Of a DNA stretch of 46,350 bases, positions 3,831 to 38,020 are shown one piece after another. The stretch lies in the IMG/VR virus record IMGVR_UViG_3300020147_000006, positions 1 through 46,350 of that record; one strand, given 5' to 3'. Origin of the DNA: a virus. Under the pieces are notes generated by a model. The model ran no database searches and had not been told where the DNA came from. It saw nothing but the letters and a program-made list of their open reading frames with translations. Each line of letters starts with the position of its first letter. The stretch's first letter is position 1. Made by a program: the position numbers and the translations under genes.

Positions 3831-4018
3831 CCGCAGAGACAAAAGACGTGACGGAACGGCCCGCAATCACGCTGATCCAATGCGGATGCGGCGCACATAA
3901 TAAATGCGAGCACGAGTGGGGCGGCTGGCGCGAAATCGATGGCGGGCGTGGCGGCGAGCAGTTCTGCCAGAAGTGCGGGCTCGGTGCGATGGCTCACACC
4001 CTCAGCTTGGATTGGTGA
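3827..4018 (+). CDS. small zinc-ribbon-like protein, 63 aa
   Basis: 63 aa with QCGCGAHNKCEHEW and FCQKCGLG, giving several cysteines and histidines spaced like a zinc ribbon. The Cys/His-GCGAHNKCEHEWGGW layout is typical of small phage metal-binding orphans. ATG overlaps the preceding stop (ATGA). Metal binding is an inference from spacing. Confidence 0.65.
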   Translation: MTAETKDVTERPAITLIQCGCGAHNKCEHEWGGWREIDGGRGGEQFCQKCGLGAMAHTLSLDW

Positions 4019-4024
4019 CAACAA

Positions 4025-5290
4025 ATGACCGACGCAAAGATTGCACACATGGCGAACCGCTTCCTGAACTGGAAGCTGCCTGACGGTTTCAATCCCGATG
4101 GTGGCATCAGCTTTGAGAAGATCGGCAACAAGGGCACGCCTCACGAGTACAAGCGCGAGCCGGTAGGCACGAACCTGCTTGGCTACGCTGATGCGGTGGC
4201 AATGGTCCGCCACATGCTCGAAGGTTTGCCCCAAGGCGATGATGTGGAAATGGACGCCAGACGGGACATCGGCTATCAGCCGGGCGAGCGCGATGCTCCA
4301 CGGAACGCGAAGGATCAGGCAGACTGCCTCGCGCAGTTGCTTTACCGCAGAAACGCGCACGCCCGCGACCTGATCGGCGGAAGCAATGCGCAGATTTTGA
4401 ACGACGCAATAGCCGAGATCGCCCGCCTCCGCTCCACCTCCAAAGCGGAGGTCCCCGAAGGATGGCAGTTGGTGCCGAAAGAGCCGACGGAGGAAATGTT
4501 GCTCGCCGCGCAGCGTGCCGTTGGCGACCACAGTGATCCCGAAGATTGGCTTGAAGACGAAGGCCGCGAGATCGCGCAGGTCTTCCGCGCCCTTCTTTCC
4601 GCCGCGCCACCTCCGCCCCACCCCACAAACCTTGCGCTACAAGCTACCAGTGTAGTGCAAGACGGGATGAGGGAAGCGCTGGAGCCGTTCGGCAACGTGT
4701 GTGGCGAAGGCAGTTCCGATTTCCCGGACGAAACGCCGGTCACCATCAAATTCGGACGCACCACGCACTTCGCCGTGAAACTCGGTGATTTCCGCCGTGC
4801 CCGCGCCGCTCTCGCAGCCGCCCCCACAATGGACGAACGTCCTCAATGTGACGGCCACGGCGCACTGACCCGGACCCGTCACGATCAGGATCAATTTGGT
4901 CCTGTCGTAGTCGACGAGACTACACAATGCCCCGGCTGCCCTGCCTGCGCCCCCACAATCGACGCCGTGGCAGAAGAACGGGCTATTGCCGACATCGCAG
5001 CCGAACGCCGTCGCCAGATCGAGACGGAAGGCTGGACGCCGGAACACGGCGACACGCATGACAAGGGCGAGCTGGCAGATGCAGCCGCCTGCTACGCGTC
5101 TCCGCAAAGCGTTGGCTTTGCCGGGGCCGTCTTCGGCCGATTGCCGTGGCCGTTTGAGCGCCAGTGGTTCAAGCCGCGAGACGCACGGAAGAACCTCATC
5201 CGCGCGGGCGCTCTGATCGTCGCCGAAATCGAACGCCTAGACCGCGCCGCCATACGCGCTCGCGGAACTGATGGGGGGACAAATGGCTGA
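4025..5290 (+). CDS. mosaic protein built from several small phage modules, 421 aa
   Basis: The 421-aa chain reads like several orphan phage domains joined by Ala/Pro linkers: residues 1-69 (MANRFLNWKLPDGFNPDGG type); about 95-140 (coiled ADCLAQLLYRRN type); about 142-195 (VPEGWQLVPKEPTEEM type); about 215-268 (MREALEPFGN type); about 276-310 with paired cysteines (CPGCPAC); and about 318-410 (AAERRRQIETEGWTPEHGD type). The last three or four are commonly seen as separate small phage proteins. No enzymatic motif is visible. The gene ends in a repeated junction sequence shared with its neighbour. Function unknown. Confidence 0.75.
   Translation: MTDAKIAHMANRFLNWKLPDGFNPDGGISFEKIGNKGTPHEYKREPVGTNLLGYADAVAMVRHMLEGLPQGDDVEMDARRDIGYQPGERDAPRNAKDQADCLAQLLYRRNAHARDLIGGSNAQILNDAIAEIARLRSTSKAEVPEGWQLVPKEPTEEMLLAAQRAVGDHSDPEDWLEDEGREIAQVFRALLSAAPPPPHPTNLALQATSVVQDGMREALEPFGNVCGEGSSDFPDETPVTIKFGRTTHFAVKLGDFRRARAALAAAPTMDERPQCDGHGALTRTRHDQDQFGPVVVDETTQCPGCPACAPTIDAVAEERAIADIAAERRRQIETEGWTPEHGDTHDKGELADAAACYASPQSVGFAGAVFGRLPWPFERQWFKPRDARKNLIRAGALIVAEIERLDRAAIRARGTDGGTNG
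5273..5290 (+). repeat. gene-junction repeat A, copy 1
   Basis: GGGGGGACAAATGGCTGA, identical to 5544-5561. It holds the ribosome binding site and start of the downstream gene plus the stop of the upstream gene, so a whole gene could be swapped between two copies by homologous exchange. Confidence 0.9.
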
Positions 5291-5561
5291 GACTCTGCTG
5301 ACCGAAAAACAATGGCGGACGCTCGATGATTTTCGGAACCACTGGCACGCGTTTTCCCAGTGCGATCTGATCCCAATCGACAGCGACGAATTCACATCAC
5401 GGCTCGAAGCGGAGGGCTACATCGAAATGGCCACGGTGACGAAGCGGGTTCTGGCCGAAACATCATTCGCAGCCGAACTCGGCTTCGAACTCGGTGGGAC
5501 ATACTGGAAGCTAACCGACAAGGGCCACGCCGCTCTCGCGACCGGGGGGACAAATGGCTGA
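5283..5561 (+). CDS. hypothetical protein, possible winged-helix fold, 92 aa
   Basis: Starts at ATG 5283 inside the repeated junction (G-run ribosome site at 5273-5278). The sequence has an N-terminal helix (EKQWRTLDDFRNHW), a segment like a recognition helix (DSDEFTSRLEAEGYIEM) and a beta-wing-like end (GGTYWKLTDKGHAAL), the pattern of small winged-helix proteins. No close family is recognised. It ends in a second copy of the junction repeat. Confidence 0.65.
   Translation: MAETLLTEKQWRTLDDFRNHWHAFSQCDLIPIDSDEFTSRLEAEGYIEMATVTKRVLAETSFAAELGFELGGTYWKLTDKGHAALATGGTNG
5544..5561 (+). repeat. gene-junction repeat A, copy 2
   Basis: Second exact copy of GGGGGGACAAATGGCTGA, 271 bp after the first, again spanning a stop/start overlap. 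Confidence 0.9.
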
Positions 5562-5886
5562 TCACACGCCGGGGCCTTGGCACTACCAGGAGGAATCCGA
5601 CGCATACACGCATATCGTGCGTGGCCCAACGGACAACTTCATCGTCCAGCTTCCCCAGGACACGAGCGGGCGCGCGGAAGCCAACGCCCGTCTCATAGCA
5701 GCAGCGCCAGCGATGCTAGAGGCGCTACAGGCAATCAGCAGCGACCCGTACGGCTGCGTGTTTTGCGACAGCGGTGCGCTGCACAATCCATCCAAAGGTC
5801 ACGAGGATTCGTGCGGCTTCTTCAAAGCCCAGACCGCCATCGCTCTCGCCACTGGCGCAGACGCAAAAGAGGGGACAGCGGAATGA
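5554..5886 (+). CDS. conserved phage protein (HTPGPW / ANARLIAAAP type), 110 aa
   Basis: The N-terminus MADHTPGPWHYQEESDAY and the segment EANARLIAAAPAMLEALQAI are hallmarks of a very common orphan family in tailed phages and prophages. A C-terminal CVFC and SC give three cysteines. No function has been assigned that I know of. Start is inside junction repeat A copy 2. The 3' end carries a 20-nt sequence repeated at the end of the next gene. Confidence 0.75.
   Translation: MADHTPGPWHYQEESDAYTHIVRGPTDNFIVQLPQDTSGRAEANARLIAAAPAMLEALQAISSDPYGCVFCDSGALHNPSKGHEDSCGFFKAQTAIALATGADAKEGTAE
5854..5873 (+). repeat. gene-end repeat B, copy 1
   Basis: GGCGCAGACGCAAAAGAGGG, identical to 6156-6175. Both copies encode a GADAKEG tail and provide the purine-rich ribosome site for the next gene. 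Confidence 0.9.
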
Positions 5887-6191
5887 GCACAACAGGCGAA
5901 CGCATCGAAGCGAACGCGGACCTGACGCTGTGGTGTGTCCACATTCTCGGCCCAGACGATGTTCTCGCAGCGCCGTCGCATGACGCCGCTGCCGTCCACG
6001 CCCATGAGTTGAACAAGGCGGTCCACAGCAGAGTGAGCGAGCCGAACGATGTCCTTTGCTTCGCATATGCCGCGCCGTGGCCGTACAGCCGTGAACATCA
6101 CGCAGAGGCGGTTAAGGATTGGCTGAAGCACACGGCGCGGCGTTCCACCACTGTCGGCGCAGACGCAAAAGAGGGAGGGGCGGATGTCTAG
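5883..6191 (+). CDS. hypothetical protein, 102 aa
   Basis: A soluble 102-aa protein beginning MSTTGERIEANADLTLWCVH. It has an N-terminal alpha/beta-looking stretch (LWCVHILGPDDVLAAPSHDA) followed by an Ala/His-rich helix; the sequence resembles orphan phage proteins but no family is claimed. The ATG overlaps the previous TGA (ATGA). The C-terminus ends in the same GADAKEGG tail as its neighbour (repeat B). Confidence 0.7.
   Translation: MSTTGERIEANADLTLWCVHILGPDDVLAAPSHDAAAVHAHELNKAVHSRVSEPNDVLCFAYAAPWPYSREHHAEAVKDWLKHTARRSTTVGADAKEGGADV
6156..6175 (+). repeat. gene-end repeat B, copy 2
   Basis: Exact copy of the 20-mer at 5854-5873, again at a gene 3' end just ahead of the next start codon. 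Confidence 0.9.
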
Positions 6192-6711
6192 CGTTCACCA
6201 CCCTGATTGCGACCGGCTAATTGCGGTTCTCCATCCGATGACACGCGGCGTCCGAGTGAAGCGTGGTTATTGGATAACCGACCCAGACTGTGGGATGCAC
6301 ATCAACGAAAACGGCGGTGATTGGTGTTACCTCTGCGGCTCGGTGACCGTGCTGCAATTGCAAGCGCTCGATGCCGAGCGACGGGACGAATACACGCTCG
6401 ACGGCGGCTGGCGGTCGGAGCACGACACCCCGCCCATGTGCGCGGGCTGCGGCGCAAAGATCGATGGCGCGCTCCTGCTCTACGGCGCCGTCTATGAGCT
6501 AGAGCATTTCCGAGAACACCCTCCGAAATCTGGTAGCGCCGACGACTGCTATGCGATCTGCGAAATGTTGGCCGCGCTCTCGTTTACCAGTGTCGAGGAC
6601 GCACCACTGGCTCAAGAGGCCATTGCCATCGCAGACGCGATGCTCCGTAACGCCGATTCCACCCCTCTCCCCGCAGGGGGGCGGGTCAGCACGGATGGGG
6701 GTGCGGAGTGA
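6184..6711 (+). CDS. Cys-rich hypothetical protein, 175 aa
   Basis: 175 aa with HHPDCDR near the N-terminus, WCYLCGS at about 47-53 and MCAGCGAKIDGAL near 85-97, giving two CxxC knuckles likely to hold zinc. A short acidic helix region follows. No family recognised. ATG overlaps the preceding gene by 8 nt. The last codons carry junction repeat C. Perhaps a small nucleic-acid-binding protein, but this is inference. Confidence 0.7.
   Translation: MSSVHHPDCDRLIAVLHPMTRGVRVKRGYWITDPDCGMHINENGGDWCYLCGSVTVLQLQALDAERRDEYTLDGGWRSEHDTPPMCAGCGAKIDGALLLYGAVYELEHFREHPPKSGSADDCYAICEMLAALSFTSVEDAPLAQEAIAIADAMLRNADSTPLPAGGRVSTDGGAE
6673..6689 (+). repeat. gene-end repeat C, copy 1
   Basis: GCAGGGGGGCGGGTCAG, identical to 6906-6922. 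In both places it lies near the 3' end of a gene shortly before the next start. Confidence 0.85.
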
Positions 6712-26751: not shown

Positions 26752-27068
26752 ATGATGACCTCCTGCGTCTTCAGATACCGATACTCGTTCGAATTCAGCA
26801 GACGCGTGAGCAGGTCTTGGTGCTCAGGCCTCAATGGATCGACGCCGTATTCCTTAATCCATTGATATTGAATGGTTACCGGCACGGAAGCATAGTGCCG
26901 GAACTCGCTTTTCCGGTCGACGCTTTCGCCCTGGCAGGCCTTGTTGTGATCGAGCAGCGGCTCGACGTCCTGCTGGTAGTGGAGCGCGAACGTCCCGTCA
27001 CCGAAGCCCTCGTAATCGATACGAAGGCCCCGGGACGGGTCATACTCGAAGAGACGACGCTGACCCAT
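26748..27068 (-). CDS. conserved podophage protein between coat and adaptor, 106 aa
   Basis: 106 aa. Contains QQDVEPLLDHNKACQGESVD and YASVPVTIQYQWIKEYGVDP followed by RPEHQDLLTRLLNSNEYRYL, a layout often seen in small proteins directly downstream of coat genes in podoviruses. It may be a minor capsid or connector component. Starts 3 nt after the coat stop; no strong ribosome site, consistent with coupling. Confidence 0.6.
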   Translation of the reverse strand: MGQRRLFEYDPSRGLRIDYEGFGDGTFALHYQQDVEPLLDHNKACQGESVDRKSEFRHYASVPVTIQYQWIKEYGVDPLRPEHQDLLTRLLNSNEYRYLKTQEVII

Positions 27069-27071
27069 GGG

Positions 27072-28112
27072 TTAGGTCTGATCCACGGCGTCGGTGTCGA
27101 TGTCGGCCAGCACGCCGTTCTTCTGCTCGTCGGCGCACTCGAGCGTGAGTTCGGCTGCAAGCATCTTGCGGTCGGAATGGCCGAGTTTGGCAAGCGGAGA
27201 GGTCTTCAGCGGCTGCAGGAATCGGGCCGACCACGAACTCATGTCGAGCACGAGCGCCGTGCGGTTCGCGTCCTCGATGTCGGTACGGGCCTTGTTGGTC
27301 CAGGTGTTGTCGCGGCCGGTGCCGTGGCACATGAACCGGTTCGGCACGATCGAGTGCAGTCCGAAGTCGGACTTGTAGATGTCGGCCGCCGCGATGATCA
27401 CGGCGGCCTTGGTGCCTGGGTTGTCGCGGTACTGGGTCGCGATGCCGGTGAAGCCCGAGAACTTCTGCTTCATGGCGCCGTTGACCATGATGGTCGACGG
27501 GTTGCCGCCGCGCATCCAGGCCTGTTGGATCACGTCCTTGAGCAGCGCTTCCGTGGCCTGGCGGAGCGTGCCGTCGGTCGCCGCCACGATCAGGCCCGTG
27601 CCTGTGTTATAGCCGCCCGACGAGCCGGTGGCGCCGCGGGAGACGTTGGTCTTGATGTAGGCCTCGGCGCCGCCCATCTGACCGGCGGTCCCCGCCGCTC
27701 CGAGAACGGAGGCATAGTTGCCGGTGGCCCGGGCCTCGAAGTCGCGCTTGATTTCCTTGCCGCGCTTCAGGACCTGATAGGCGAGCTCGTCCTCGCGGCC
27801 GGCGGCTTCGACCGCCTGCGCCGTGCTGGACACCTCGACCACCTTGTCGAAGAGCTGCACGACGTTCTTGAGGCGCACGGGCTGGGTGCCGGCGTCGTTG
27901 GCGGCGGTATCGCCTTCGATGTTCATGTTGGCGGGATCGGGAGCCGCGAGGCTGTCGGTCTGCCACTCGGGCGTGCGGTTCTTGGCGCTCTTCTTCGAGA
28001 TCCCCGAATAGAACGGAACCTCCGTCGGATCGATCATGGTGATCGTGTCCGACAGGTCTTCTCGGATGCCGACCATAGCGAAGGTCTGCACCGTGTTGGA
28101 TGCAACGGTCAT
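27072..28112 (-). CDS. major capsid protein (SU10 family)
   Basis: 346 aa. The N-terminus DTITMIDPTEVPFYSGISKK with the following TPEWQTDSL matches the SU10 major capsid family (formerly DUF5309), an HK97-fold coat. The family-typical PVRLKNVVQLFDKVVEVSST and LKRGKEIKRDFEARATGNYA segments follow. AAGGA lies 8 nt before the ATG, suiting the most abundant virion protein. Preceded by the scaffold gene, as usual. Confidence 0.85.
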   Translation of the reverse strand: MTVASNTVQTFAMVGIREDLSDTITMIDPTEVPFYSGISKKSAKNRTPEWQTDSLAAPDPANMNIEGDTAANDAGTQPVRLKNVVQLFDKVVEVSSTAQAVEAAGREDELAYQVLKRGKEIKRDFEARATGNYASVLGAAGTAGQMGGAEAYIKTNVSRGATGSSGGYNTGTGLIVAATDGTLRQATEALLKDVIQQAWMRGGNPSTIMVNGAMKQKFSGFTGIATQYRDNPGTKAAVIIAAADIYKSDFGLHSIVPNRFMCHGTGRDNTWTNKARTDIEDANRTALVLDMSSWSARFLQPLKTSPLAKLGHSDRKMLAAELTLECADEQKNGVLADIDTDAVDQT

Positions 28113-28137
28113 GATAATTGTCCTTGTCTGAGGGGTG

Positions 28138-29283
28138 CTAGATCAGGCCTTTGACGGCCTTGACGGCATCGTGGATGCTCCCGGTCTGGCTCAGCTTGGC
28201 CATCGCCTGGGATCGTCCTGCCGCCTTCGAGTCGGTCGTGATACGCGCTGCACCCTTCACAAGCTTCGGCTTCTGGCGAACGACCTTGACCGCCTCGGCC
28301 TGTTTCGCTTTCGACGCGCGAAACTCCAGCGCATCGCGGATCACAAGAAACATCCGGTGGTCCGTCGTCGCTGCGATTTCCTCGGGAGTGAAGCCGTAAT
28401 CCTTGCGCAGGACTTCGGTCACCTTCTTCACCGTCTCCGGGCTCTTGGCCTCGGGCCAGGCCTTGTAAAGCGCCTCGCGCTCGCCTGCGAGATGCGCCTT
28501 CATCAGAGCGGCGTTCTGCTCGGTCTGCTCTTTCGTCAGCGTCTCATGCTGCTTGGCGATGTCCGCGATCGCCGCCTTGGTCTGCTCGAACTGCTGATAG
28601 GCCATGCGGTAGGCGGCGGGGTCGTAACTGGGATGGCTTTCGTCCAGCATCGCCGTGCTCGGCGGCTGCGGGTTGAACAGCTTGGAGACGAACTCAAGGC
28701 CCTTGAGGTACTGCCCGCGGGCCTGGACCGTCTCAAGCACGGCCGTCTTATATTCGGCCGGGACGTGCGCGGATTCGGAGCGCAGCGTTTCGAGCTCGGT
28801 TTCGAGCTTGGCGGCCTTCTCGTAGCCCTCCACGAGCTCGGACAGCTTGCGCCGCGTCGGGTCCTTGCCCTCGGCCTCGGGCGGGAACTCGAACTCGAGG
28901 TCCTCGTCGTCATCGGCAGCGGCCTTGGCCGGATCATCCTCGACCTTGGCCTCGGCCGGCGGTTTGCCGGTCTTCAGGTCCACGACCTTGTTTTCCGGGT
29001 CGTCGGAGACGGCGGGCTTTTCGGCCGCCTTGAACTTGCCGCTGGGCTCACGCTCGCGCTCGGCGCGCATGGAATTGGCGAGCAGGGCCGCGCCGCTGTC
29101 CATCGTCAGCGCTGACGGGGGCTCTGCGAAATCGAACGCGGGCTCGTCGCCGCCGGCACCCTCGTCTTCAGGCTTGAAGCAGACCTGAAAGAACTTGTTG
29201 GTGGCGAGCGCGGCAGCGCCCGCGATGATGGGCTGGAACTGCACATCGATCGCCGAGATGTCCGAGACGTCGATCTTATCCAT
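28138..29283 (-). CDS. capsid scaffolding protein, 381 aa
   Basis: 381 aa, acidic and helical with long disordered Glu/Asp/Pro/Lys-rich parts (KVEDDPAKAAADDDEDLEFE), a coiled region (about 160-280) and a basic C-terminus (KPKLVKGAARITTDSKAAGR) that would contact coat subunits. This profile and its place between portal and coat identify a scaffold. Its ATG overlaps the upstream gene by 8 nt. Confidence 0.8.
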   Translation of the reverse strand: MDKIDVSDISAIDVQFQPIIAGAAALATNKFFQVCFKPEDEGAGGDEPAFDFAEPPSALTMDSGAALLANSMRAEREREPSGKFKAAEKPAVSDDPENKVVDLKTGKPPAEAKVEDDPAKAAADDDEDLEFEFPPEAEGKDPTRRKLSELVEGYEKAAKLETELETLRSESAHVPAEYKTAVLETVQARGQYLKGLEFVSKLFNPQPPSTAMLDESHPSYDPAAYRMAYQQFEQTKAAIADIAKQHETLTKEQTEQNAALMKAHLAGEREALYKAWPEAKSPETVKKVTEVLRKDYGFTPEEIAATTDHRMFLVIRDALEFRASKAKQAEAVKVVRQKPKLVKGAARITTDSKAAGRSQAMAKLSQTGSIHDAVKAVKGLI

Positions 29284-29551
29284 TGGCTTTGGCCTTTTCC
29301 ATTTGCTTGCGGCCGAACGTGGCCTCGGTTTGCAGGTAGGATTTGAGGTTGCGGACGACCCTGATCTGCATCGCGCAGTCGCGCCGCGTGCCGTCGTCGC
29401 TGAGATCGGCCGTCAGCATCTCCGCGATAAGACGCCGCTCTTCATCGGCGAACCACGCGGTAACAACGTCGTCGGAGATCAGCCGCTCGGCGGCGAGCCC
29501 GCGGTTGATCTGATCCTGTTCGCGCTCTTCCTTCGGGCGTGACGGCTTCAT
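29276..29551 (-). CDS. small protein between portal and scaffold, 91 aa
   Basis: 91 aa, charged and helical (MKPSRPKEEREQD start; TAWFADEERRLIAEMLTADL). No family recognised. ATG overlaps the portal stop (ATGA). Proteins at this place are often assembly chaperones or unknowns; no claim is made. Confidence 0.65.
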   Translation of the reverse strand: MKPSRPKEEREQDQINRGLAAERLISDDVVTAWFADEERRLIAEMLTADLSDDGTRRDCAMQIRVVRNLKSYLQTEATFGRKQMEKAKANG

Positions 29552-31764
29552 TTCGCGAGGCTCCCACCGGGCCGGCTCTTCTTCATCGCGGGCTTAGAAC
29601 CGTTGGCCTTGGCCTTGGCGTTTTCCCTCGCCGCGATCGCACCCACGGCGGCCTGCCGTTGGCTGTCGCGCTCGGCCTGCTCGCCTTCCATGTCCATGCG
29701 CATCTGCTCGAGGCGGGCCTCCATGTTCATGCGCATGACGGCGATGCGCTCTTCCATGGCGACGCGGATTTCCGCGAGCTGCTGCTCGGACTGGACCTTG
29801 AACGCGGCCAGCTCGCGCTCGGAGGCGAGTTTCTGAGCCTGCGCCTGCTGGTCGAACGCCTGCTTCTGCTGCTGGAGCTGGGCGGCGACCTGCGCCTTCT
29901 CCGTCTCCAGCTTGTTCTTCATCTGCGCCTCGACCAGCTTCGGGTCGGGCTGCGGCTCGGGTGCGAAGTCCTCCGGCACCTCGCCGAAGAACAGGCTCGG
30001 ATCGAGGAAACCCATGGTCGTGGCCATGTTGGCCAGCGTGTTGCGGTAGTGCTGCAGCGTCACCAGCGGGTTTGACGCGCCGGCCTGAAGTAGGACTTGC
30101 TCCTGCTTGGCCGCGATCAGCGACAGGTTGCCGAGGCGCTGGTGCTTCGATACGCCGGCCTCGCCGACGTTGACCGAAACCGAGACTTCATCCGACCACG
30201 TGCGCGGATCGACCTCGCACCACTGCCCGAATAGCTTGACCTGGCGCGGCTTGTCCTGATGCGCCGCAAGCAACTGCGCCGCACGCTTGAACACGTCCTC
30301 GAGGCCGGCCCCGAGCCAGGTGGCGATCAGCTCGATACGGGAGCGCCCGGCCGCCTGCAGCAGCTCGATCCCCGTCGCCGTCTTGTTGAGCGACGCCGGG
30401 TCCATACCCTGCTTGTGCTTGGTGTTGCCCGAGGCTTCCTGCTTGCGCTGGTCGAAGTATTCGAGCGCGTTGAGCGCCGGCCCCGAGATGTCGGGCGCCG
30501 TGACCTCGAGCACCGCAGCGTTGGGGTCGCCCTTGACCGGGATGACGCCGGACAGCTCGTTATCGGCCACGGCATCGATGCCGTTCTGGTCCATGGCCTG
30601 CGTGTTGACGTAGGTCCTGGGCGATAGGGTCGACGCGAGGCTGTCGAGATAGGACCGCGTGATTTCCGTGCGAATGCGCTGGATGTCGTCCAGCATGTCC
30701 GCAATCGAGAGGCCAATAGCCCGGTGCGAAACCCGGTTCGGGCTCCACAGCACATAGTCCGAGGCCTCGACCGCATAGTTTTCGAGCACAACCGTGCCGA
30801 CGCGCTTGACGTAGCGCAGCTCGACAATCCCGTCGCCGTCGAAGTCCACACGGACGTATTCCTCGTGGAGAATGACCTGGCGGCGGCCCTTGTCCTGGTT
30901 GTTCGGCTCCGGGTCGATGTTGTCGTCGGGATAGCGGGCCTGCTTGCGGCCGTCGTCCCAGATCGAGTCCGCCCAGTTGGCCGCGGCGCTCAACCCGTCA
31001 AGGTCCTCTTCCTTTTCAGGGTAGGACCGCTTCAGTTCCGCGAGGTACGCCGGGCGCTTGCGGCGGTGGTACTTGGCATCGCAGATGTTGCGCGCCGTCT
31101 TGGTGAGGGCGAACTCCTCGGGCGGCACGGCCTCGATATGAACCCGGCCCATCTTGGGCGTGCGGCGCACCTCGAGCGTGAAGACGCCGTTTTCCTCGTC
31201 CTGCGAGAGGATTTCGTATTCCGGGTCGTCGGTGTAGCGGAGAAGCTGCTCGGCGCTCACGCCCTCGATCGTCTGGGGCGGCTTCGGCTCCGGGTCTTCC
31301 CAGGAGACCTGCATGATGCCGACGCGCTGAACGAGGCCATCAAAGGCGAAGTCAAAAATGTTTTCCTTGCCGCGGTTGTCCTTGAAGAACACGTGCGACA
31401 GGTAGGCGGCCTGGATGTCGACCTTGCTTTTCTTGCTCAGGATCGGCTTGCCGTCGGGACCAGCGCCCATCTGGTAGGGCTGATCGTCCTCGGGCTTGCT
31501 GGCTTCGATGCTGACCAGATCGACCGGGCTCGCGAAGCAGCGCATGAGGTCGGGCATGATCGAGTTGACGTCATCGGCGATGTCGCGCGATACGACCTTG
31601 GACCGGCCCTCCTTCTCGTTGCCGTAGGGGCGACCGAAATACCAGTTGAGCCCGTTCTCCTGGACCTTGGCCAGCTCGGAGTCGTGATACGACGCCGCGT
31701 CCGCGTCCTCCTGGCGGAGAATGCGGATCAGGTCCTCCTCATCCATTTTGCTGGCCTTGGGCAC
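29548..31764 (-). CDS. portal protein (P22-like), 738 aa
   Basis: 738 aa, similar in length to P22 portal (725). N-terminal DEEDLIRILRQEDADAASYH, EVQENGLNWYFGRPYGNEKE-like segment and SRDIADDVNSIMPDLMRCFA, then a central clip region and a Gln/Met-rich C-terminal coiled coil (LQQQKQAFDQQAQAQKLASE, MEERIAVMRMNMEARLEQMR) resembling the long barrel of P22-type portals. The start is GTG 31764, sharing bases with the TerL stop (TAGTG); ATG 31746 is the alternative. Confidence 0.85.
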   Translation of the reverse strand: MPKASKMDEEDLIRILRQEDADAASYHDSELAKVQENGLNWYFGRPYGNEKEGRSKVVSRDIADDVNSIMPDLMRCFASPVDLVSIEASKPEDDQPYQMGAGPDGKPILSKKSKVDIQAAYLSHVFFKDNRGKENIFDFAFDGLVQRVGIMQVSWEDPEPKPPQTIEGVSAEQLLRYTDDPEYEILSQDEENGVFTLEVRRTPKMGRVHIEAVPPEEFALTKTARNICDAKYHRRKRPAYLAELKRSYPEKEEDLDGLSAAANWADSIWDDGRKQARYPDDNIDPEPNNQDKGRRQVILHEEYVRVDFDGDGIVELRYVKRVGTVVLENYAVEASDYVLWSPNRVSHRAIGLSIADMLDDIQRIRTEITRSYLDSLASTLSPRTYVNTQAMDQNGIDAVADNELSGVIPVKGDPNAAVLEVTAPDISGPALNALEYFDQRKQEASGNTKHKQGMDPASLNKTATGIELLQAAGRSRIELIATWLGAGLEDVFKRAAQLLAAHQDKPRQVKLFGQWCEVDPRTWSDEVSVSVNVGEAGVSKHQRLGNLSLIAAKQEQVLLQAGASNPLVTLQHYRNTLANMATTMGFLDPSLFFGEVPEDFAPEPQPDPKLVEAQMKNKLETEKAQVAAQLQQQKQAFDQQAQAQKLASERELAAFKVQSEQQLAEIRVAMEERIAVMRMNMEARLEQMRMDMEGEQAERDSQRQAAVGAIAARENAKAKANGSKPAMKKSRPGGSLAK

Positions 31765-33071
31765 TAAGCAATCCTCGCGGTCTTACGTTTGAGGTTGGCG
31801 GTCTTGCTGGCGCGGCTCGGGTCCTCGTAGCCGACGCACATCAGCCCGTAGGCGTCAGCGCCGTGCGATGACCAGTCGTGTTCGGGGCCAAGCCCGATGT
31901 CGCGATCGTCCTCGGACTTCTTCTCGTGGTACCAGCCGAGCGCATCGCGGCCGGCTTCCGTCGACGTCTCGTCAAACCAGACCGCTGGGAACACGCGCCG
32001 GGCCGCCTCAATGCGCATCCGGGCCGCGCCCTTCCCCTGATTGGGGATCACGGTCACGTTGTAGCCGGCGGCGCGGAACGCGCTTTCGAATGAGACGTCG
32101 TAGATGCGATCGTTCGTTGCCCCGTCGTGGGGCAGGTAGATGTCGGCGCGCGCCGGGCTGTAGCCCTTGAGGTGCAGCCATTCGATATGCGAGGCGAGCG
32201 GTTGCCCCACGGCCTCGTAATAGTCCCGGGTCCGTATCTGGGCGCCGATGAACTGCGCCGGCCACATCGAGAAGGCGTCTGCCTTCGCCCCCGTGCCGCC
32301 GAGGTCGCAGAACACACGCACCCGCATGAGCGGATCGAACGCGACCGGGCCAATGCGCCCTTGTTCCTTGGCCGACTTCAGCGCCGATGCGAAGTAGGCG
32401 CCCTCCACGACCGAGACGAAATCGCCCTCCCACACGTGGTCATACTGCTCGGGGCGCTTGATCCGGTCCTCGCGGCGCGTCTTGTCGAGCGTGGCGGGAA
32501 ACCACGGGTTGTCGCGCCAGTTGAGCGACACGATTTTGGCGCCCTCGGGCGGGTCGTCGCGGAACCGCTTGTGGGTTGCCGACTTCTTGCGCTCCGGGTT
32601 CCACGTCACCCAGATTTCCGAGCCGTCCTCGCGCACCGTCGGTATGGCCTTGGCCCAGGCCTTTTCGGATACCGGCTCAGCCTCATCCACCCACAGCAGC
32701 CGGATCCGCGCCTTGGACTTGATGCTGTCCAGGTTATGGCGGAGACCGATGAACGCGAACTCGATCCGCTTGCATTTGGTGCGGATGAACTTCTCGCCGA
32801 CCTCGTAAGCTGCCGCCAGCCACGGCTCGGACGCGATCGCAGCCTTGACCTCGGCGAAAGAGCTTTCGTCCAGCGAGTTCATGAACTCACGGCCACACAC
32901 GATCACGCCGGGCAGATTGGCCCTGGCGAACCGTAAGCCGAACACAGCCGCCATCTTGGCGAAGGTCCGCGTCTTGGCCGAACCACGACCGCCATACGCC
33001 CCTCGGTACATGGCCTCTCCCGTGAACACCGGGATCAGCTTGGGGGGCAGCTCAATGCGCTGCGTGGTCAT
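31764..33071 (-). CDS. terL: terminase large subunit
   Basis: 435 aa from ATG 33071. ATPase: Walker A GGRGSAKT (27-34), Walker B LLWVDEAE (125-132), coupling motif TWNP (156-159). Nuclease: VFCDLGGTGAKADAF with D256, and a late acidic motif HDWSSHGADAYG near 405-415, as in the RNase H-like nuclease of packaging motors. It cuts concatemers and pumps DNA through the portal. The frame could start 15 codons earlier (33116); ATG 33071 is preferred as it overlaps TerS by only 20 nt and has GAGAG before it. Confidence 0.92.
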   Translation of the reverse strand: MTTQRIELPPKLIPVFTGEAMYRGAYGGRGSAKTRTFAKMAAVFGLRFARANLPGVIVCGREFMNSLDESSFAEVKAAIASEPWLAAAYEVGEKFIRTKCKRIEFAFIGLRHNLDSIKSKARIRLLWVDEAEPVSEKAWAKAIPTVREDGSEIWVTWNPERKKSATHKRFRDDPPEGAKIVSLNWRDNPWFPATLDKTRREDRIKRPEQYDHVWEGDFVSVVEGAYFASALKSAKEQGRIGPVAFDPLMRVRVFCDLGGTGAKADAFSMWPAQFIGAQIRTRDYYEAVGQPLASHIEWLHLKGYSPARADIYLPHDGATNDRIYDVSFESAFRAAGYNVTVIPNQGKGAARMRIEAARRVFPAVWFDETSTEAGRDALGWYHEKKSEDDRDIGLGPEHDWSSHGADAYGLMCVGYEDPSRASKTANLKRKTARIA

Positions 33072-33390
33072 CACTCTCGGAGAGCGGGGCGACAAGCTCG
33101 ATACGGCTGACGGCAACCGTCGCGTCGACTTCAGCCTTGACGTCGACGGAGCCTAGCTTGGGCTTCTCGTAGCCAATGGCGGCCGTGGCGGCAGCGAGCC
33201 GGTCTTTCACGGGCAGCGTCCGGTCCTTGTAGATCGCCATGAGGAAGGCGTGCGCATCGCCGTCGAAGGCGTCGGGGAGCAGGTCATTGAGGACTTTCGC
33301 GGTCTCCTCGACCTTCTTCTCCCGTTCCTTCGTGTACTGGCTCTTGGCGCCTTTCGGCCTGCCGCGGGGATTTCCGGTTTTTCTGCCCAT
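33052..33390 (-). CDS. terS: terminase small subunit
   Basis: 112 aa from ATG 33390 (a TTG 18 nt upstream is possible). The N-terminus GRKTGNPRGRPKGAKSQYTK is basic and DNA-binding-like, followed by a helix bundle (EREKKVEETAKVLNDLLPDA) and KDRTLPVKDRLAAATAAIGY, a segment common in small terminases of this kind. It should recognise the packaging start and recruit TerL. It is preceded by a parS-like site (33431-33446). Confidence 0.75.
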   Translation of the reverse strand: MGRKTGNPRGRPKGAKSQYTKEREKKVEETAKVLNDLLPDAFDGDAHAFLMAIYKDRTLPVKDRLAAATAAIGYEKPKLGSVDVKAEVDATVAVSRIELVAPLSESDDHAAH

Positions 33391-33403
33391 TTTCCGATTT
33401 TCG

Positions 33404-33420
33404 CCCAATTAATAATTGGG
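33404..33420. repeat. AT-rich palindrome upstream of terS
   Basis: CCCAATTAATAATTGGG, a 7-bp inverted repeat with 3-bp spacer, unusually AT-rich for this genome. It sits between the parS-like site and terS and could be a protein-binding or packaging signal. Confidence 0.45.
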
Positions 33421-33430
33421 ATGAGTTGCA

Positions 33431-33446
33431 TGTTCCACGTGAAACG
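33431..33446. promoter_or_regulatory. parS-like centromere site
   Basis: TGTTCCACGTGAAACG matches the canonical chromosomal parS (TGTTTCACGTGAAACA) at 14 of 16 positions with the central CCACGTG/CACGTGAAAC core intact. It lies in a 42-bp gap between terS and the next gene. No ParA or ParB is encoded here, so host ParB would be the binder (inference). Confidence 0.6.
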
Positions 33447-33450
33447 TCGG

Positions 33451-33645
33451 CTAGTCCTTAGGGCGCCACCAGAACAGCAGGCCATCGTGCTTTGGTTCGC
33501 AAATGCCTACGAGGACAACACTGGGGTCAGACCAAAGAGGGTCGTCTGCTTGCAGACGCTTCAATGCGTCTTCCCGCGTTTTGGCATCAACGGCGGCTAG
33601 GATCCTGCCGTTTGCCCTCGTCACTTCGAACAGATGCCATTTCAT
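33451..33645 (-). CDS. hypothetical protein, 64 aa
   Basis: 64 aa from ATG 33645, overlapping the previous stop (ATGA); the frame upstream of this is not used. Begins MKWHLFEVTRANGRILAAVD and has ALKRLQADDPLWSDPSVVLV; a small alpha/beta protein. No family recognised. Last gene before the parS-like site and terS. Confidence 0.6.
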   Translation of the reverse strand: MKWHLFEVTRANGRILAAVDAKTREDALKRLQADDPLWSDPSVVLVGICEPKHDGLLFWWRPKD

Positions 33646-34833: not shown

Positions 34834-34841
34834 CGGAATCA
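34834..34841. repeat. 8-bp target site duplication, left copy
   Basis: CGGAATCA, identical to 37926-37933. Eight base pairs is the usual target duplication length for the IS1595 family. Confidence 0.85.
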
Positions 34842-34871
34842 GGCGATATTATACTTGCCAAACCCATGGCG
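34842..34871 (+). repeat. IS1595 left terminal inverted repeat
   Basis: 30 bp starting GGCGATATTATACTTGCC. 29 of 30 positions match the right end; the mismatch is at position 7. Confidence 0.9.
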
Positions 34872-34905
34872 AAGCAGTATATTGGAATCCATAGGAGATT
34901 CCGCC

Positions 34906-35847
34906 ATGTCGCTTCTGAGCCAAAAACACCTGCAAGATGAGGAAGCCGCTTACGCCTGGGTTGAGGCCCGCGTATGGCCGGAAGGCCCCGTCTGCCCCCA
35001 CTGCGCAGAGAAGGCGCGCGTCTCAAAGATGCAGGGCAAGGCAACCCGGTTCGGCCTCTACAAGTGCTACGCCTGCCGGAAGCAGTTTCGCGTGACCGTG
35101 AACACCATTTTCGAGAAGAGCCACGTCGCCCTGCATCTATGGCTCCAGGCGTTCTATCTGGTCGCTGGTTCGAAGAAGGGTATCAGCTCGAACCAGCTTC
35201 ACCGCACTCTAGGCGTGACCCTCAAGACTGCGTGGTTCATGTCGCACCGTATCCGTGAGGCAATGCGTGCTGGCTCTCTGTCGCCTCCAATGGGCGGCAA
35301 CGGTGGGGCGGTGGAAGTCGATGAGACCTACCTCCATCTGACCGATGCAGCGCGCGATCTGCAGGCGAGGGGCGTCAAGGTCGTTCGTCGCGGCATGCAC
35401 CGGGTGATCTTGACCCTTGTGGAGCGTGGCGGCGACGCCCGTAGCTTCCACGTCGAGACCGCCAGCAGCGGGACTCTGCTGCCCATCGTGCAGGAGAACA
35501 TCGCCAAGGAAGCGCTGATTGTCACTGACGACGCAGCCTACTATCGGTTCTTGAAAAAGCGCGGCCACAAGCACGAAAAGGTCAACCACTCACAGGAGGA
35601 GTGGGTACGCGGCACCATCCACACCAACACCGTCGAAGGCTACTTCTCGATTTTCAAGCGCGGGATGAAGGGCGTCTATCAGCACTGCTCGGAGAAGCAC
35701 CTACACCGCTATCTCGCGGAGTTCGACTTCCGCTACAACAACCGCGTCAAACTCGGCGTGAACGACGAGCAGCGCGCGTCTAAAGCGGTGGCTGGCGTCG
35801 TCGGCAAGCGACTGACCTACCGAACGACTGGTTCGCGAGCCAAGTGA
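34906..35847 (+). CDS. IS1595-family transposase
   Basis: 313 aa from ATG 34906 (AGGAG at 34893-34897). An N-terminal zinc ribbon (CPHC near 29-32, CYAC near 53-56) precedes an ISXO2-like catalytic domain: VEVDETYL gives the first Asp, VTDDAAYY the second, and HTNTVEGYFSIFKRGMKGVY the final Asn/Glu-Lys region. All catalytic landmarks are present, so the enzyme is probably active. An upstream in-frame extension leaves the element and is not used. Confidence 0.9.
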   Translation: MSLLSQKHLQDEEAAYAWVEARVWPEGPVCPHCAEKARVSKMQGKATRFGLYKCYACRKQFRVTVNTIFEKSHVALHLWLQAFYLVAGSKKGISSNQLHRTLGVTLKTAWFMSHRIREAMRAGSLSPPMGGNGGAVEVDETYLHLTDAARDLQARGVKVVRRGMHRVILTLVERGGDARSFHVETASSGTLLPIVQENIAKEALIVTDDAAYYRFLKKRGHKHEKVNHSQEEWVRGTIHTNTVEGYFSIFKRGMKGVYQHCSEKHLHRYLAEFDFRYNNRVKLGVNDEQRASKAVAGVVGKRLTYRTTGSRAK

Positions 35848-35929
35848 GATTGAATTATCCCGCGAACTCCGGCGGGCATTCCTTCTATGGAGGACCCGCC
35901 GTAACCCCTAAGAACACTACAGGAACATT

Positions 35930-35959
35930 GACGCCGCGTGACCGATTCGGCTATTGTCA
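35930..35959 (+). promoter_or_regulatory. promoter of the transposon cargo genes
   Basis: TTGACG (35930-35935), 18-bp spacer, TATTGT (35954-35959). The spacer carries GATTC at 35946-35950, a GANTC site as methylated by CcrM. The ImmA-like start codon is 29 nt after the -10. In alphaproteobacteria, GANTC sites near the -10 are a feature of GcrA/CcrM-controlled promoters. Confidence 0.6.
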
Positions 35960-35987
35960 ACTCTGAGTCGAAATATCAGAGAGCCAG

Positions 35988-36488
35988 ATGGTCGATTTCG
36001 GCGCCATCCTCGAACGTCCAAGGTGGGCATTAGCGCGTTCTCGCGCTAATGAACTCGCCGCGTCGTATTCTTCTCCGCCAATACCCGTCAAAGAAATCGC
36101 AGAAAGCAACGGCGTGGATGTCGTGTTCGCGCGATTTCGGCACTTAGATGATGTCGTTGCAGGGTTTTGCGATTTCGAGGCTCACAAACTGTATGTCAAC
36201 GCCGGAGATGGTATGGCTCGGCAGCGTTTCACAATCGCTCATGAGCTAGGCCACTGGGTTTTGCATAGGGAGTACTTCCTCGCCCACCCGGAATCCTATC
36301 CTGTCCTGCCTCGCTTCGAAAAGCCTGACAAGGACAATTATATGGAGAAGGAGGCGAATAGCTTCGCCGCCCATATACTTGTCCCAGAACGGCTTTTGAC
36401 GCCTGTTAGGCGCTACCCCGTTTCGAAGTTGGCTCAACTGTTTCTAGTGTCGCGTGAAATGATGGAGCATCGTTTGAAATATGCCTGA
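35988..36488 (+). CDS. ImmA/IrrE-family metallopeptidase (transposon cargo)
   Basis: 166 aa. Zinc-peptidase motif HELGH in FTIAHELGHWVLHRE, with the third ligand likely in EKEANSFAAHILVP. The preceding VDVVFARFRHLDDVVAGFCD and LYVNAGDGMARQRF segments are typical of COG2856 (ImmA/IrrE) proteins, which cleave XRE-type repressors or regulators in mobile elements and phages. No XRE partner lies beside it, but the phage's own XRE repressor is a possible target (inference). It overlaps the next gene by 8 nt. Confidence 0.8.
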   Translation: MVDFGAILERPRWALARSRANELAASYSSPPIPVKEIAESNGVDVVFARFRHLDDVVAGFCDFEAHKLYVNAGDGMARQRFTIAHELGHWVLHREYFLAHPESYPVLPRFEKPDKDNYMEKEANSFAAHILVPERLLTPVRRYPVSKLAQLFLVSREMMEHRLKYA

Positions 36489-36924
36489 CGATAATGGTCA
36501 GGCTGACCAACCAAAGCCCAAGAAAGCGGCCGGAAACAAGCGGCGCCCCACATTAACTGAGGCGAAGCTTTCCGTCGAAACCGTTGAGGTAACCCAACAA
36601 GGCGGAGAGAAAGAATATGAAGATGACTTCTCGGCCAAATCTGTAACCGCAGAAGCCGAATATACTCATCTCACGGGGCTCCAAGACCACTATAAGCACA
36701 AACGCTATTGGTCTTGGTTCCTGATGGGGCTAATGACGGCTATGATTATCTTTCAGACTCTTGTGATTTACAAAGTTGGCGTTAAGTCCTGGGATTACAC
36801 TGAATACAAGTGGCTTTTACCGGCGTTGCTGGTGCAAAATCTCGCCCAAATCGTCGGGCTCGCCGTGTTTGTCGTAAAATCCCTATTTGCGAATTTGGAT
36901 CGACAAGGAAAAGCAAACTCCTAA
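36481..36924 (+). CDS. two-span membrane protein (transposon cargo), 147 aa
   Basis: 147 aa. A charged N-terminal half (about 1-75, rich in Lys/Glu/Pro) precedes two transmembrane helices (YWSWFLMGLMTAMIIFQTLV and WLLPALLVQNLAQIVGLAVF) and a short basic tail. Both ends are predicted in the cytoplasm. It is translationally coupled to the ImmA-like gene upstream and to the small protein downstream (TAATG), suggesting a three-gene unit. It might be an effector or the membrane sensor of the peptidase; no family recognised. Confidence 0.65.
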   Translation: MPDDNGQADQPKPKKAAGNKRRPTLTEAKLSVETVEVTQQGGEKEYEDDFSAKSVTAEAEYTHLTGLQDHYKHKRYWSWFLMGLMTAMIIFQTLVIYKVGVKSWDYTEYKWLLPALLVQNLAQIVGLAVFVVKSLFANLDRQGKANS

Positions 36925-37103
36925 TGCCCAAGCGCAAAGCCCCACCTGAGAAGCCCAAGGACCAGTTCAAGCGGTTCGTAGAGACGGCGAAGAAGCACGA
37001 GGTTGACGAGACCGGCGCTCCTCTGGAGGAGGCATTTAAGAAAGTCCGGGCTCCTCGGCCAAATGCTCCGCGAGGTGTCGCATCAGGCCGCGGGTCGCGT
37101 TGA
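36924..37103 (+). CDS. small charged protein (transposon cargo), 59 aa
   Basis: 59 aa. MPKRKAPPEKPKDQFKRFVE, TAKKHEVDETGAPLEEAFKK: basic N-terminus, then a helical part with the pattern FVETAKKHEVDET. Small proteins of this pattern occur widely on mobile elements; their role is unknown to me. The start overlaps the preceding stop (TAATG). The last 68 nt are antisense to the end of the HEPN gene. Confidence 0.55.
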   Translation: MPKRKAPPEKPKDQFKRFVETAKKHEVDETGAPLEEAFKKVRAPRPNAPRGVASGRGSR

Positions 37104-37884
37104 AAATATCGCGGGCCTTATCGGGGGGGACTATCGCGTCTATGTGAGCGAACCTGTTCCGCCACGCAAGCTTTACAGCATGCATGTGAGCGGATACCCC
37201 CGCATAAAAATCGACTTCACCCTTGATGGTGCGGTCCTTGTGTTCTTTCTTTAACTCGCTGTCGATCGCTTTCAACACAGGGTCCCAGTTTGGCCTTGGG
37301 TCGTTAGGCAGAAACCGCTTACCCAAAATCTGTAATGGCACCTCAAGAGCTCTCATCAGGTGAAATGCACTGGCGGTATAGCGCTCGAGCCCTAGGCACT
37401 TCCCTGCCTCTTCAAGGTCAGCTACGGCTCTTGGGAACGCCTTCACTACCTCATCCCCGAATAGCGGGACGGCGTTGTTGTAGTATGCTCCGTCGTCCTC
37501 TGACAGGATCAGGATGGAGCGGTCTTGAAGATCCTCTCTGATCCGTTCTGTCAGTTCGTCAAAGCGGTATGGGAAGTCCCCAGCCTCGAAGTCGTTCCGG
37601 CAAAGGTCGATAAAGCGATCCAAATGCCGTACGGCGCTCTTTGCTTTCAGTTGCTCACAGTAAGCTCGCAGCTCGCCCAAATTCCCGCTGAGCGTGAGTC
37701 GCAGTTCAGCTCCGAATATCTTTTTTTCGCCTTTGAACGATTGGGCTAGGTTTCTGGCCTTCTCCAAGAGCTGAGCGTACTCGTAGAAGCTTCCTGCGTT
37801 GTATTCCAGCATGTCCCACAGGCTCACGAGCCCGCGTTTAGGCCATTCCCGCTGCGCCGGGCAGTGCGCTAGCTTATTGGGCAT
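37036..37884 (-). CDS. HEPN-type protein with RNxxxH motif (transposon cargo)
   Basis: 282 aa from ATG 37884; a longer frame would leave the element and is rejected. A helical protein with ASAFHLMRALEVPLQILGKR in the middle and AWRNRFAHIDAIVPPDKARD near the C-terminus: RNRFAH fits the RNxxxH active site of HEPN ribonucleases used in toxin-antitoxin, abortive-infection and other defence systems. The C-terminal FNATRGLMRHLAEHLAE completes the helical bundle. It runs against the other cargo genes but in the direction of the phage late operon, and its start lies 2 nt after the stop of the truncated phage gene. Confidence 0.7.
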   Translation of the reverse strand: MPNKLAHCPAQREWPKRGLVSLWDMLEYNAGSFYEYAQLLEKARNLAQSFKGEKKIFGAELRLTLSGNLGELRAYCEQLKAKSAVRHLDRFIDLCRNDFEAGDFPYRFDELTERIREDLQDRSILILSEDDGAYYNNAVPLFGDEVVKAFPRAVADLEEAGKCLGLERYTASAFHLMRALEVPLQILGKRFLPNDPRPNWDPVLKAIDSELKKEHKDRTIKGEVDFYAGVSAHMHAVKLAWRNRFAHIDAIVPPDKARDIFNATRGLMRHLAEHLAEEPGLS

Positions 37885-37895
37885 GGCTACACCCC

Positions 37896-37925
37896 CGCCA
37901 TGGGTTTGGCAAGTATAACATCGCC
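37896..37925 (-). repeat. IS1595 right terminal inverted repeat
   Basis: 30 bp, inverted copy of the left end with one mismatch. It ends at the target duplication. Confidence 0.9.
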
Positions 37926-37933
37926 CGGAATCA
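37926..37933. repeat. 8-bp target site duplication, right copy
   Basis: CGGAATCA, same as 34834-34841. Confidence 0.85.
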
Positions 37934-38020
37934 TGTAACGGCCCGCGCCGTTCCGGCCACGCAAGAGGAACCACGTTCCATCTTTGGGCGGCGGAAGTAT
38001 TTCAACTGATTTGTATGCGC

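What the first reader, a model, noticed from the sequence alone, without database searches (positions are those of the whole stretch)
34842..37925. IS1595-family transposon carrying an ImmA-like peptidase, membrane protein, small protein and HEPN protein
The element has clear ends (30-bp repeats, one mismatch; 8-bp duplication) and four non-transposition genes. Three on the plus strand overlap or abut (an ImmA/IrrE-like protease with HELGH, a two-span membrane protein, a small charged protein) behind their own promoter. The fourth is a convergent HEPN-type protein with RNRFAH. Proteases of this family release repressors, and HEPN proteins are common RNase toxins in defence. The set could therefore be a transposable defence, addiction or prophage-control module. 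I do not recognise this combination as a described system.
Basis: partly seen in the sequence, partly recalled or inferred. Interest (0 to 1): 0.85.

Follow-up and report, generated by a model that had tools for sequence, protein, structure and literature searches.

The report
Jumping gene with swappable toxin-like cargo
A small bacterial jumping gene has landed in a phage genome carrying two sets of genes that look like cell-arrest or defence weapons, and its relatives carry other such genes in the same slots, so it looks like a vehicle that shuffles such weapons between genomes.

Summary
A 3,084-bp IS1595-family transposon (34842-37925; 30-bp TIRs, one mismatch; 8-bp TSD) sits in a small ORF of a phage contig and carries four extra genes.

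The four are not one system; there are three units. (1) ImmA-like peptidase + two-helix membrane protein: a conserved pair. ImmA lies directly upstream in 25 of 26 distinct membrane-protein loci from several phyla, mostly with overlapping frames; none of the others held an IS1595 transposase. (2) The 59-aa protein is a transposon hallmark: 13 of 17 homologues in 289 alphaproteobacterial genomes have an IS1595 transposase nearby. (3) The HEPN-type protein is recurrent cargo: 6 of 7 homologues in that sample, 3 of 8 in a second, lie beside an IS1595 transposase.

Of 20 delimited related elements (window included), 12 carry toxin-, RNase- or restriction-type cargo by profile: HEPN, PIN, Panacea, NYN, RelA/SpoT, methylase-nuclease. 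So this is a modular IS1595 transposon with toxin/defence-type cargo. Likely mechanism (inferred): HEPN RNase arrest plus a protease-controlled membrane effector.

Tn7 and Tn3 elements are known to carry such cargo. The IS1595 vehicle with its small protein, and the ImmA-membrane pair, were not found described in my searches. No function was tested.

The parts
34834..34841 (.). target-site duplication, left copy
   Evidence: CGGAATCA, identical to 37926-37933
34842..34871 (+). left terminal inverted repeat; holds the -35-like hexamer of a promoter-like site facing the transposase
   Evidence: 30 nt, 97% complementary to the right end; TTGCCA-17-TATATT at 34855-34883, 10 of 12 matches
34906..35847 (+). 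IS1595-family transposase (Zn ribbon + DDE)
   Evidence: Pfam PF12762 5.9e-38, PF12760 1.4e-11; NCBIfam NF033547 3.7e-55
35928..35957 (+). promoter-like site before the ImmA gene (weak)
   Evidence: TTGACG-18-TATTGT, 9 of 12 matches
35988..36488 (+). ImmA/IrrE-like Zn peptidase without HTH domain, HELGH plus EAN motif
   Evidence: Pfam M78 1.3e-16; PADLOC capP model 1.7e-21; profile hits to IrrE and CapP structures
36481..36924 (+). membrane protein with two long helices, regular partner of the ImmA-like gene in relatives
   Evidence: ImmA upstream in 25 of 26 distinct loci; model helices 25-100 and 112-145, mean pLDDT 80.7
36924..37103 (+). 59-aa charged protein, hallmark of this IS1595 group
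   Evidence: family A5; 13 of 17 homologues in 289 genomes have an IS1595 transposase nearby
37036..37884 (-). HEPN-type protein (Rx4H: R242, H247), predicted RNase
   Evidence: motif invariant in 11 sequences; C-terminal domain of the model aligns with HEPN chains at Z 7.2-8.3
37912..37939 (-). promoter-like site for the HEPN gene, straddling right TIR and flank (weak)
   Evidence: GTTACA-16-TATACT, 9 of 12 matches
37896..37925 (-). right terminal inverted repeat
37926..37933 (.). target-site duplication, right copy

Best explanation
The element is a modular IS1595-family transposon. Its core is transposase + small protein + TIRs. It has two cargo slots: slot 1 lies between transposase and small protein on the same strand, slot 2 is transcribed inward from the right end and converges on the small protein. 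Relatives fill these slots with toxin-antitoxin, RNase or restriction-type genes. Here slot 1 holds an ImmA-like peptidase + membrane protein pair and slot 2 a HEPN-type RNase. Most likely working (inferred): both are stress- or infection-triggered growth-arrest units that help the element and its carrier phage persist or exclude rivals. HEPN cleaves RNA. The ImmA-like protease, by analogy with the ssDNA-activated CapP, acts on or through its membrane partner to switch on a membrane effector. Shown here: element, architecture, gene pairings, recurrent cargo type. Inferred: catalysis, triggers, toxicity, benefit. The small protein's role (transposition helper or cargo regulator) is open.
For: TIR/TSD and transposase. 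20 of 45 scored IS1595 transposase loci could be delimited by TIR score and a TSD of 7-8/8; all 20 are 1,857-4,306 bp, well beyond the roughly 0.9-1 kb transposase gene. Twelve of the 20 hold cargo identified by profile as toxin/RNase/antitoxin/RM type: HEPN x4 (my own profile), PIN x2 (one of them beside a methylase-Mrr protein), methylase-Mrr, cytosine methylase + GIY-YIG nuclease, methylase-HNH, SocA_Panacea, NYN, RelA_SpoT. The small protein occurs in 10 of the 20. HEPN beside an IS1595 transposase: 6 of 7 and 3 of 8. The nearest transposase relative (L148) has the same layout with other slot-1 ORFs. ImmA + membrane pairing in 25 of 26 loci. GC content differs by unit: transposase 60.6, small 61.7, ImmA 52.7, membrane 48.2, HEPN 55.1 %.
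Against: No function tested. Of the 20 delimited elements, 3 are called HEPN-like by motif alone and 5 have no toxin/defence call; there is no background rate to compare with, and the TSD was used in choosing the ends. In the second sample 4 of 8 HEPN loci have neither transposase nor small protein (L150, L151, L153, L154). The ImmA-membrane pair was found in no other IS1595 element. The HEPN alignments (Z 7.0-8.3) lie in the range that the tool calls common for helical bundles, and unrelated chains score alike; Foldseek alone gave no E under 0.001; no Pfam HEPN model matches. In the class sample two of three further membrane-protein hits (L063, L064) showed no ImmA hit in the short loci held.
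Confidence: 0.55

Rival explanations
1. The ImmA-membrane pair is a lysogeny/element control switch, not an effector: the membrane protein senses envelope stress or anchors ImmA, and ImmA cleaves a repressor of the resident phage or element, as ImmA does to ImmR.
For: Relatives sit beside phage integrases (L034, L035), terminase (L021), endolysins (L022, L038), an internal virion protein (L024) and a repressor (L004): 7 of 10 neighbours tested (the ten were picked by eye as phage-like, so this is not a rate). ImmA being required for inactivation of ImmR is established for ICEBs1 (passage of PMC2701414).
Against: None of the four cargo proteins in this element hits an HTH family. Several relatives lie among genes that read as housekeeping (L015, L016, L019, L020, by eye). 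A moving element would not carry its host phage's repressor control.
Confidence: 0.3
2. Small protein and HEPN form a convergent toxin-antitoxin pair: the 59-aa protein (or the overlapping antisense transcript) neutralises the HEPN RNase.
For: Convergent adjacency in 5 of 7 HEPN loci of the class sample, 3 of 8 in the order sample, 3 of 14 viral loci and the window; 68-nt overlap in the window.
Against: The small protein is also found without a HEPN hit: L097, L101-L105, L109, L111, L067, L068, L119. HEPN occurs without it (L113, L114; L150-L154; most of the viral loci). No significant match of the small protein in Pfam, NCBIfam or PADLOC.
Confidence: 0.15
3. The cargo is neutral hitch-hiking DNA carried by an IS with loose ends, with no role for element or host.
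For: Cargo differs between close transposase relatives, and HEPN is only 82 of 282 residues identical in the nearest one. Some relatives have broken genes (L099, L103).
Against: Reading frames are intact here, active-site motifs are invariant (HExxH in 25 of 25 ImmA partners; Rx4H in 11 of 11 HEPN), and the cargo type is recurrent.
Confidence: 0.12

Closest known systems
IS1595 family with passenger genes (tISCpe8, MTnSag1 in PMC5704250, passages; Siguier 2009, title seen only in reference lists)
   Same: Transposase family and TIRs; extra genes between the ends are known in the family (the review names tISCpe8 and MTnSag1 with 25-bp TIRs; [quoted passage not shown]
   Different: Those are described as resistance or mobilisable elements. 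Here the cargo is toxin/RNase/RM type and a 59-aa protein recurs next to the cargo.
Toxin-antitoxin pairs in Tn3-family transposons (PMC7157771, passages)
   Same: Transposon carrying TA genes at a fixed position; toxin types include PIN and one HEPN/MNT.
   Different: Other transposase family with resolvase; classical type II pairs; no ImmA-membrane pair and no such small protein in the passages read.
Defence and TA cargo of Tn7-like transposons (PMC8649781, passages)
   Same: Their cargo table lists ImmA (295), PIN (251), RelA-SpoT (70), HEPN (37) as toxin-antitoxin types.
   Different: Another transposon class; here a 2-4 kb IS-like element with two small slots.
CapH + CapP regulators (PMC13373217, passages)
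   Same: The window protein matches the capP model at 1.7e-21, and a four-sequence profile of it and its relatives matches a CapP structure at 4.6e-7.
   Different: CapP's partner is a DNA-binding repressor controlling an adjacent immune operon; here the partner is a membrane protein and no such operon follows.
COG2856 (ImmA) - Xre modules (PMC2701414, passages)
   Same: Zn peptidase of about 160 aa in a mobile two-gene unit, seen as TA-like.
   Different: Partner there is an Xre HTH protein; here a membrane protein.

Membership tests
IS1595 family transposon | DDE_Tnp_IS1595 domain and IS1595 Zn ribbon | tested here: met
   PF12762 5.9e-38, PF12760 1.4e-11, NF033547 3.7e-55
IS1595 family transposon | terminal inverted repeats and 8-bp target duplication (8 bp recalled as typical) | tested here: met
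   30-nt TIRs, 8-bp TSD
Peptidase M78 / ImmA-IrrE | HExxH zinc site and family profile | tested here: met
   PF06114 61 bits, cut-off 22; HELGH; HExxH in 25 of 25 ImmA ORFs of the paired loci, window included
Peptidase M78 / ImmA-IrrE | protease activity on a repressor | not testable with these tools
   needs biochemistry
CapH + CapP regulator | HTH repressor partner and adjacent immune operon | tested here: not met
   partner is the membrane protein; no HTH family hit in the cargo; no PADLOC hit for the other three cargo proteins
HEPN superfamily | Rx4-6H motif conserved in the family | tested here: met
   R242 and H247 invariant in 11 sequences
HEPN superfamily | HEPN helical-bundle fold | tested here: inconclusive
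   model residues 147-280 align with chains named HEPN: 3o10 (Z 8.3), 4nqf (7.6), 7ae2 (7.2), and with 2q00 (8.3) and AbiA 8oz7 (7.0), which I recall as HEPN-containing; unrelated helical chains score alike; no Pfam HEPN match
HEPN-MNT toxin-antitoxin | MNT nucleotidyltransferase partner | tested here: not met
   no nucleotidyltransferase family among the element's proteins
Type II toxin-antitoxin (ImmA-membrane pair) | small two-gene operon, patchy distribution | tested here: met
   25 of 26 loci paired; 19 of 25 with overlapping frames; 3 genomes beyond the seed in 385 alphaproteobacterial genomes, one of them with an ImmA hit
Type II toxin-antitoxin (ImmA-membrane pair) | one product toxic, the other neutralising | not testable with these tools
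   needs expression tests

The most novel reading that the evidence does not exclude
The ImmA-membrane pair is an undescribed, widespread two-gene immune or suicide system in which a DNA-damage- or infection-triggered ImmA-type protease unleashes a small two-helix membrane effector, similar in logic to protease-gasdermin pairs. A group of IS1595 transposons, marked by a conserved 59-aa protein, is a dedicated vehicle that swaps such units, RNase toxins and restriction systems in and out of two fixed cargo slots.
Probability: 0.22. Interest if true: 0.82.

Novelty: new variant of a known kind. Interest (0 to 1): 0.6.

Why it matters
It points to one of the simplest transposon classes as a carrier of toxin and defence genes, with an architecture that can be mined: the 59-aa protein and the TIRs mark new cargo, some of it without a family name. 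It also brings out a widely distributed ImmA + membrane protein pair whose test is simple, and it offers a route by which temperate phages may pick up such modules.

Tried and rejected
One four-gene system: rejected, because the units occur apart. Small ORF as chance or pure cargo: rejected by its own conservation and link to IS1595. Small protein as one strict transposase clade: rejected (6 changes on the tree against 14.0 in shuffles, but the one-clade tree is rejected with p-AU 4.6e-5). Membrane protein as a known family: no consistent Pfam match over 22 members, nothing useful among PDB sequences, and Foldseek found no chain for the VIA-align job. HEPN protein by sequence against PDB: nothing useful. 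Single-sequence scans of viral contigs with the membrane and HEPN proteins found nothing; alignments did. Element DNA in plasmids: only a 131-bp match in the transposase gene. Membrane-protein searches of two orders found only the seed genomes. Rfam: no match in the region. Paper searches: no description of the ImmA-membrane pair or of TA/RM cargo in IS1595 was seen in the listings or in the passages read; only open-licence papers are held, and the founding IS1595 paper was not read (a 2014 IS review cited beside it, was not held).

A conserved LPxxED-like motif near the N-terminus of the membrane protein was noted but not used: a loose regex found something like it in most rows and missed five of 22.

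Full report
THE ELEMENT. The window is a single 46,350-bp virus record. From 34842 to 37925 it holds a transposon with 30-nt inverted ends, one mismatch, and an 8-bp target duplication at 34834-34841 and 37926-37933. Joining the flanks in a script shows a small minus-strand phage ORF open across the empty site, so the insertion broke that ORF. The transposase matches the IS1595 DDE and Zn-ribbon models. The left TIR contains the -35-like hexamer of a promoter-like site facing the transposase, and the right TIR the -10-like hexamer of one facing the HEPN gene; the region had 5 such sites against a mean of 1.9 in shuffles, so only their positions are suggestive.

UNIT 1, IMMA + MEMBRANE PROTEIN. 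The 166-aa protein is an M78/ImmA-type peptidase; a four-sequence profile matches the IrrE and CapP structures. Its gene overlaps that of a 147-aa protein with two long predicted helices (model mean pLDDT 80.7, pTM 0.44). An alignment of the membrane protein (A1) found 20 loci in genome contigs and 6 in viral contigs. After removing duplicates there are 26 distinct loci including the window; 25 have an ImmA ORF directly upstream, all with HExxH; the exception, L028, begins at the contig edge. By my choice of start codons 19 of 25 pairs overlap by 8-26 nt and 4 more lie within 4 nt; L025 and L032 have larger gaps. By record titles the hosts span Alphaproteobacteria, Steroidobacter and its kin, Rhodothermales, Elusimicrobia and Saccharibacteria. 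No IS1595 transposase, HEPN or small protein was found in the flanks held for those other loci, some of which are short. Seven of ten neighbours that I picked by eye as phage-like match PHROGs phage families: integrase x2, terminase, endolysin x2, virion protein, repressor. The pair is rare: in 385 alphaproteobacterial genomes there were three hits beyond the seed, one weak; of these L062 showed an ImmA ORF, while L063 and L064 did not in the short loci held. Two order samples (216 and 215 genomes) gave only their seeds.

UNIT 2, THE 59-AA PROTEIN. It belongs to a family with a conserved RF...A core (A5). In 289 alphaproteobacterial genomes there were 17 matches in 14 genomes. Thirteen of 17 have an IS1595 transposase ORF in the same neighbourhood: L096-L106, L109, L111. 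L107, L110 and L112 have none, and L108 was not recovered as an ORF. In those 13 it lies downstream of the transposase on the same strand, directly or after slot-1 genes. On a tree of 46 transposases its presence needs 6 changes against a mean of 14.0 in shuffles (0 of 500 as low), but it is not one clade (p-AU 4.6e-5).

UNIT 3, THE HEPN PROTEIN. The Rx4H motif (R242, H247) is invariant in 11 sequences. The model (mean pLDDT 75.6) is mostly helical. Its residues 147-280 align with three chains named HEPN (3o10 Z 8.3, 4nqf 7.6, 7ae2 7.2) and with 2q00 (8.3) and AbiA (8oz7, 7.0), which I recall as HEPN-containing. Helical bundles make such scores common, unrelated chains score alike, and no Pfam HEPN model matches. 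In the 289-genome sample 7 genomes have a homologue: six lie beside an IS1595 transposase (L096, L098, L099, L100, L106 and, with a distant transposase, L113), and five of these also have the small protein convergent; L114 has neither. In a second sample, 279 genomes of the order of G002, 8 genomes have one: transposase in L148, L149, L152; small protein in L148, L149, L155; neither in L150, L151, L153, L154. Overlap of the two samples was not checked. Of 14 viral loci, 3 have the small protein and 4 a transposase ORF, all four partial. Since the class sample holds 45 transposase matches at 1e-50, chance adjacency would be of the order of 1 in 1,000 or less per locus (my estimate).

THE VEHICLE. 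I scored 45 transposase loci (window, 3 viral, 41 from the class sample) for TIRs and TSD. Twenty reach a TIR score of 12.5 and a TSD of 7-8/8; their lengths are 1,857-4,306 bp, median about 2.76 kb. The TSD was part of the choice, so some ends may be wrong. Cargo in these 20. By profile, 12: HEPN, by my own profile (window, L096, L098, L099); PIN_10 with a DUF433 protein (L102); PIN plus methylase-Mrr (L119); HARE-HTH plus methylase-Mrr (L068); cytosine-5 methylase plus GIY-YIG nuclease (L138); methylase fused to HNH (L146); SocA_Panacea (L101); NYN (L127); RelA_SpoT (L132). By motif only, 3: RNxxxH proteins of 175-263 aa (L118, L121, L130). No toxin/defence call, 5: L104, L109, L116, L117 (the copy at 6080), L126 (DUF1828). 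Outside the 20, PIN occurs in L067 and L105 and DUF3800 in L097. The small protein is in 10 of the 20. No background set was run, so enrichment is not measured.

SLOT SWAPPING. The nearest transposase relative, L148, is 81% identical over 147 columns and 76-83% at DNA level in two stretches of the transposase gene, and shares the TIR, but its HEPN is only 82 of 282 residues identical. Its slot between transposase and small protein holds other ORFs without Pfam match and an inserted integrase-like transposase. Elements of 2,192 bp with transposase, small protein and HEPN but no room for a slot-1 unit exist (L096, L098). GC content is 60.6% and 61.7% for transposase and small protein but 52.7, 48.2 and 55.1% for ImmA, membrane protein and HEPN. 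The ImmA-membrane pair thus looks like a later arrival in slot 1, where other elements keep PIN or Panacea genes (L067, L101, L102, L105, L119).

MECHANISM. Shown: architecture and pairings. Inferred: HEPN as an RNase causing arrest; ImmA as a protease acting with its membrane partner. CapP is activated by ssDNA and cleaves a DNA-binding repressor (passages of PMC13373217), and ImmA is required to inactivate ImmR (passages of PMC2701414). No HTH family appears in the cargo here, so the membrane protein is the most likely target or regulator; whether it is a pore-former, an inhibitor or a sensor is unknown.

KNOWN AND NEW. TA genes in Tn3 transposons (PMC7157771, passages) and ImmA, PIN, RelA-SpoT and HEPN among Tn7-like cargo (PMC8649781, passages) are published, and IS1595 elements with passengers are known (passages of PMC5704250). 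I found no description of toxin/RM cargo in IS1595, of the 59-aa protein, or of the ImmA-membrane pair in the searches named under Tried and rejected; those cover only open-licence papers. I read passages, not whole papers. I therefore file it as a new variant of a known kind.

Noticed in passing
L117:3924-4439, L121:4065-4601, L130:225-749, L118:2808-3596, L128:4036-4656, L129:3891-4586: A second, shorter HEPN-like protein family with a conserved R[NH]xxxH motif is cargo in other IS1595 elements in which no small protein was found.
   Followed up: partly
L068:8394-12038, L119:1401-5706, L138 (element at 3530-6328), L146:1428-4532: IS1595 elements carrying compact restriction-modification-type cargo: methylase-Mrr proteins, a cytosine methylase next to a GIY-YIG protein, and a methylase-HNH fusion.
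   Followed up: partly
L132:1456-4175: IS1595 element carrying a RelA/SpoT-domain protein, a possible alarmone-type toxin.
   Followed up: no
L099:2908-7004: A member of the element family whose transposase and HEPN gene have each been interrupted by other ORFs that read like IS5-type transposases by eye.
   Followed up: no
plasmid collection: ImmA/IrrE-like genes occur in 79 Borreliella and 44 Borrelia plasmid records; those listed are about 25-27 kb plasmids.
   Followed up: no
window 27000-33500: This part of the phage is only distantly related to phage records held: best match is a 19% stretch at 72.6% identity to Microcystis phage Mae-JY35.
   Followed up: no
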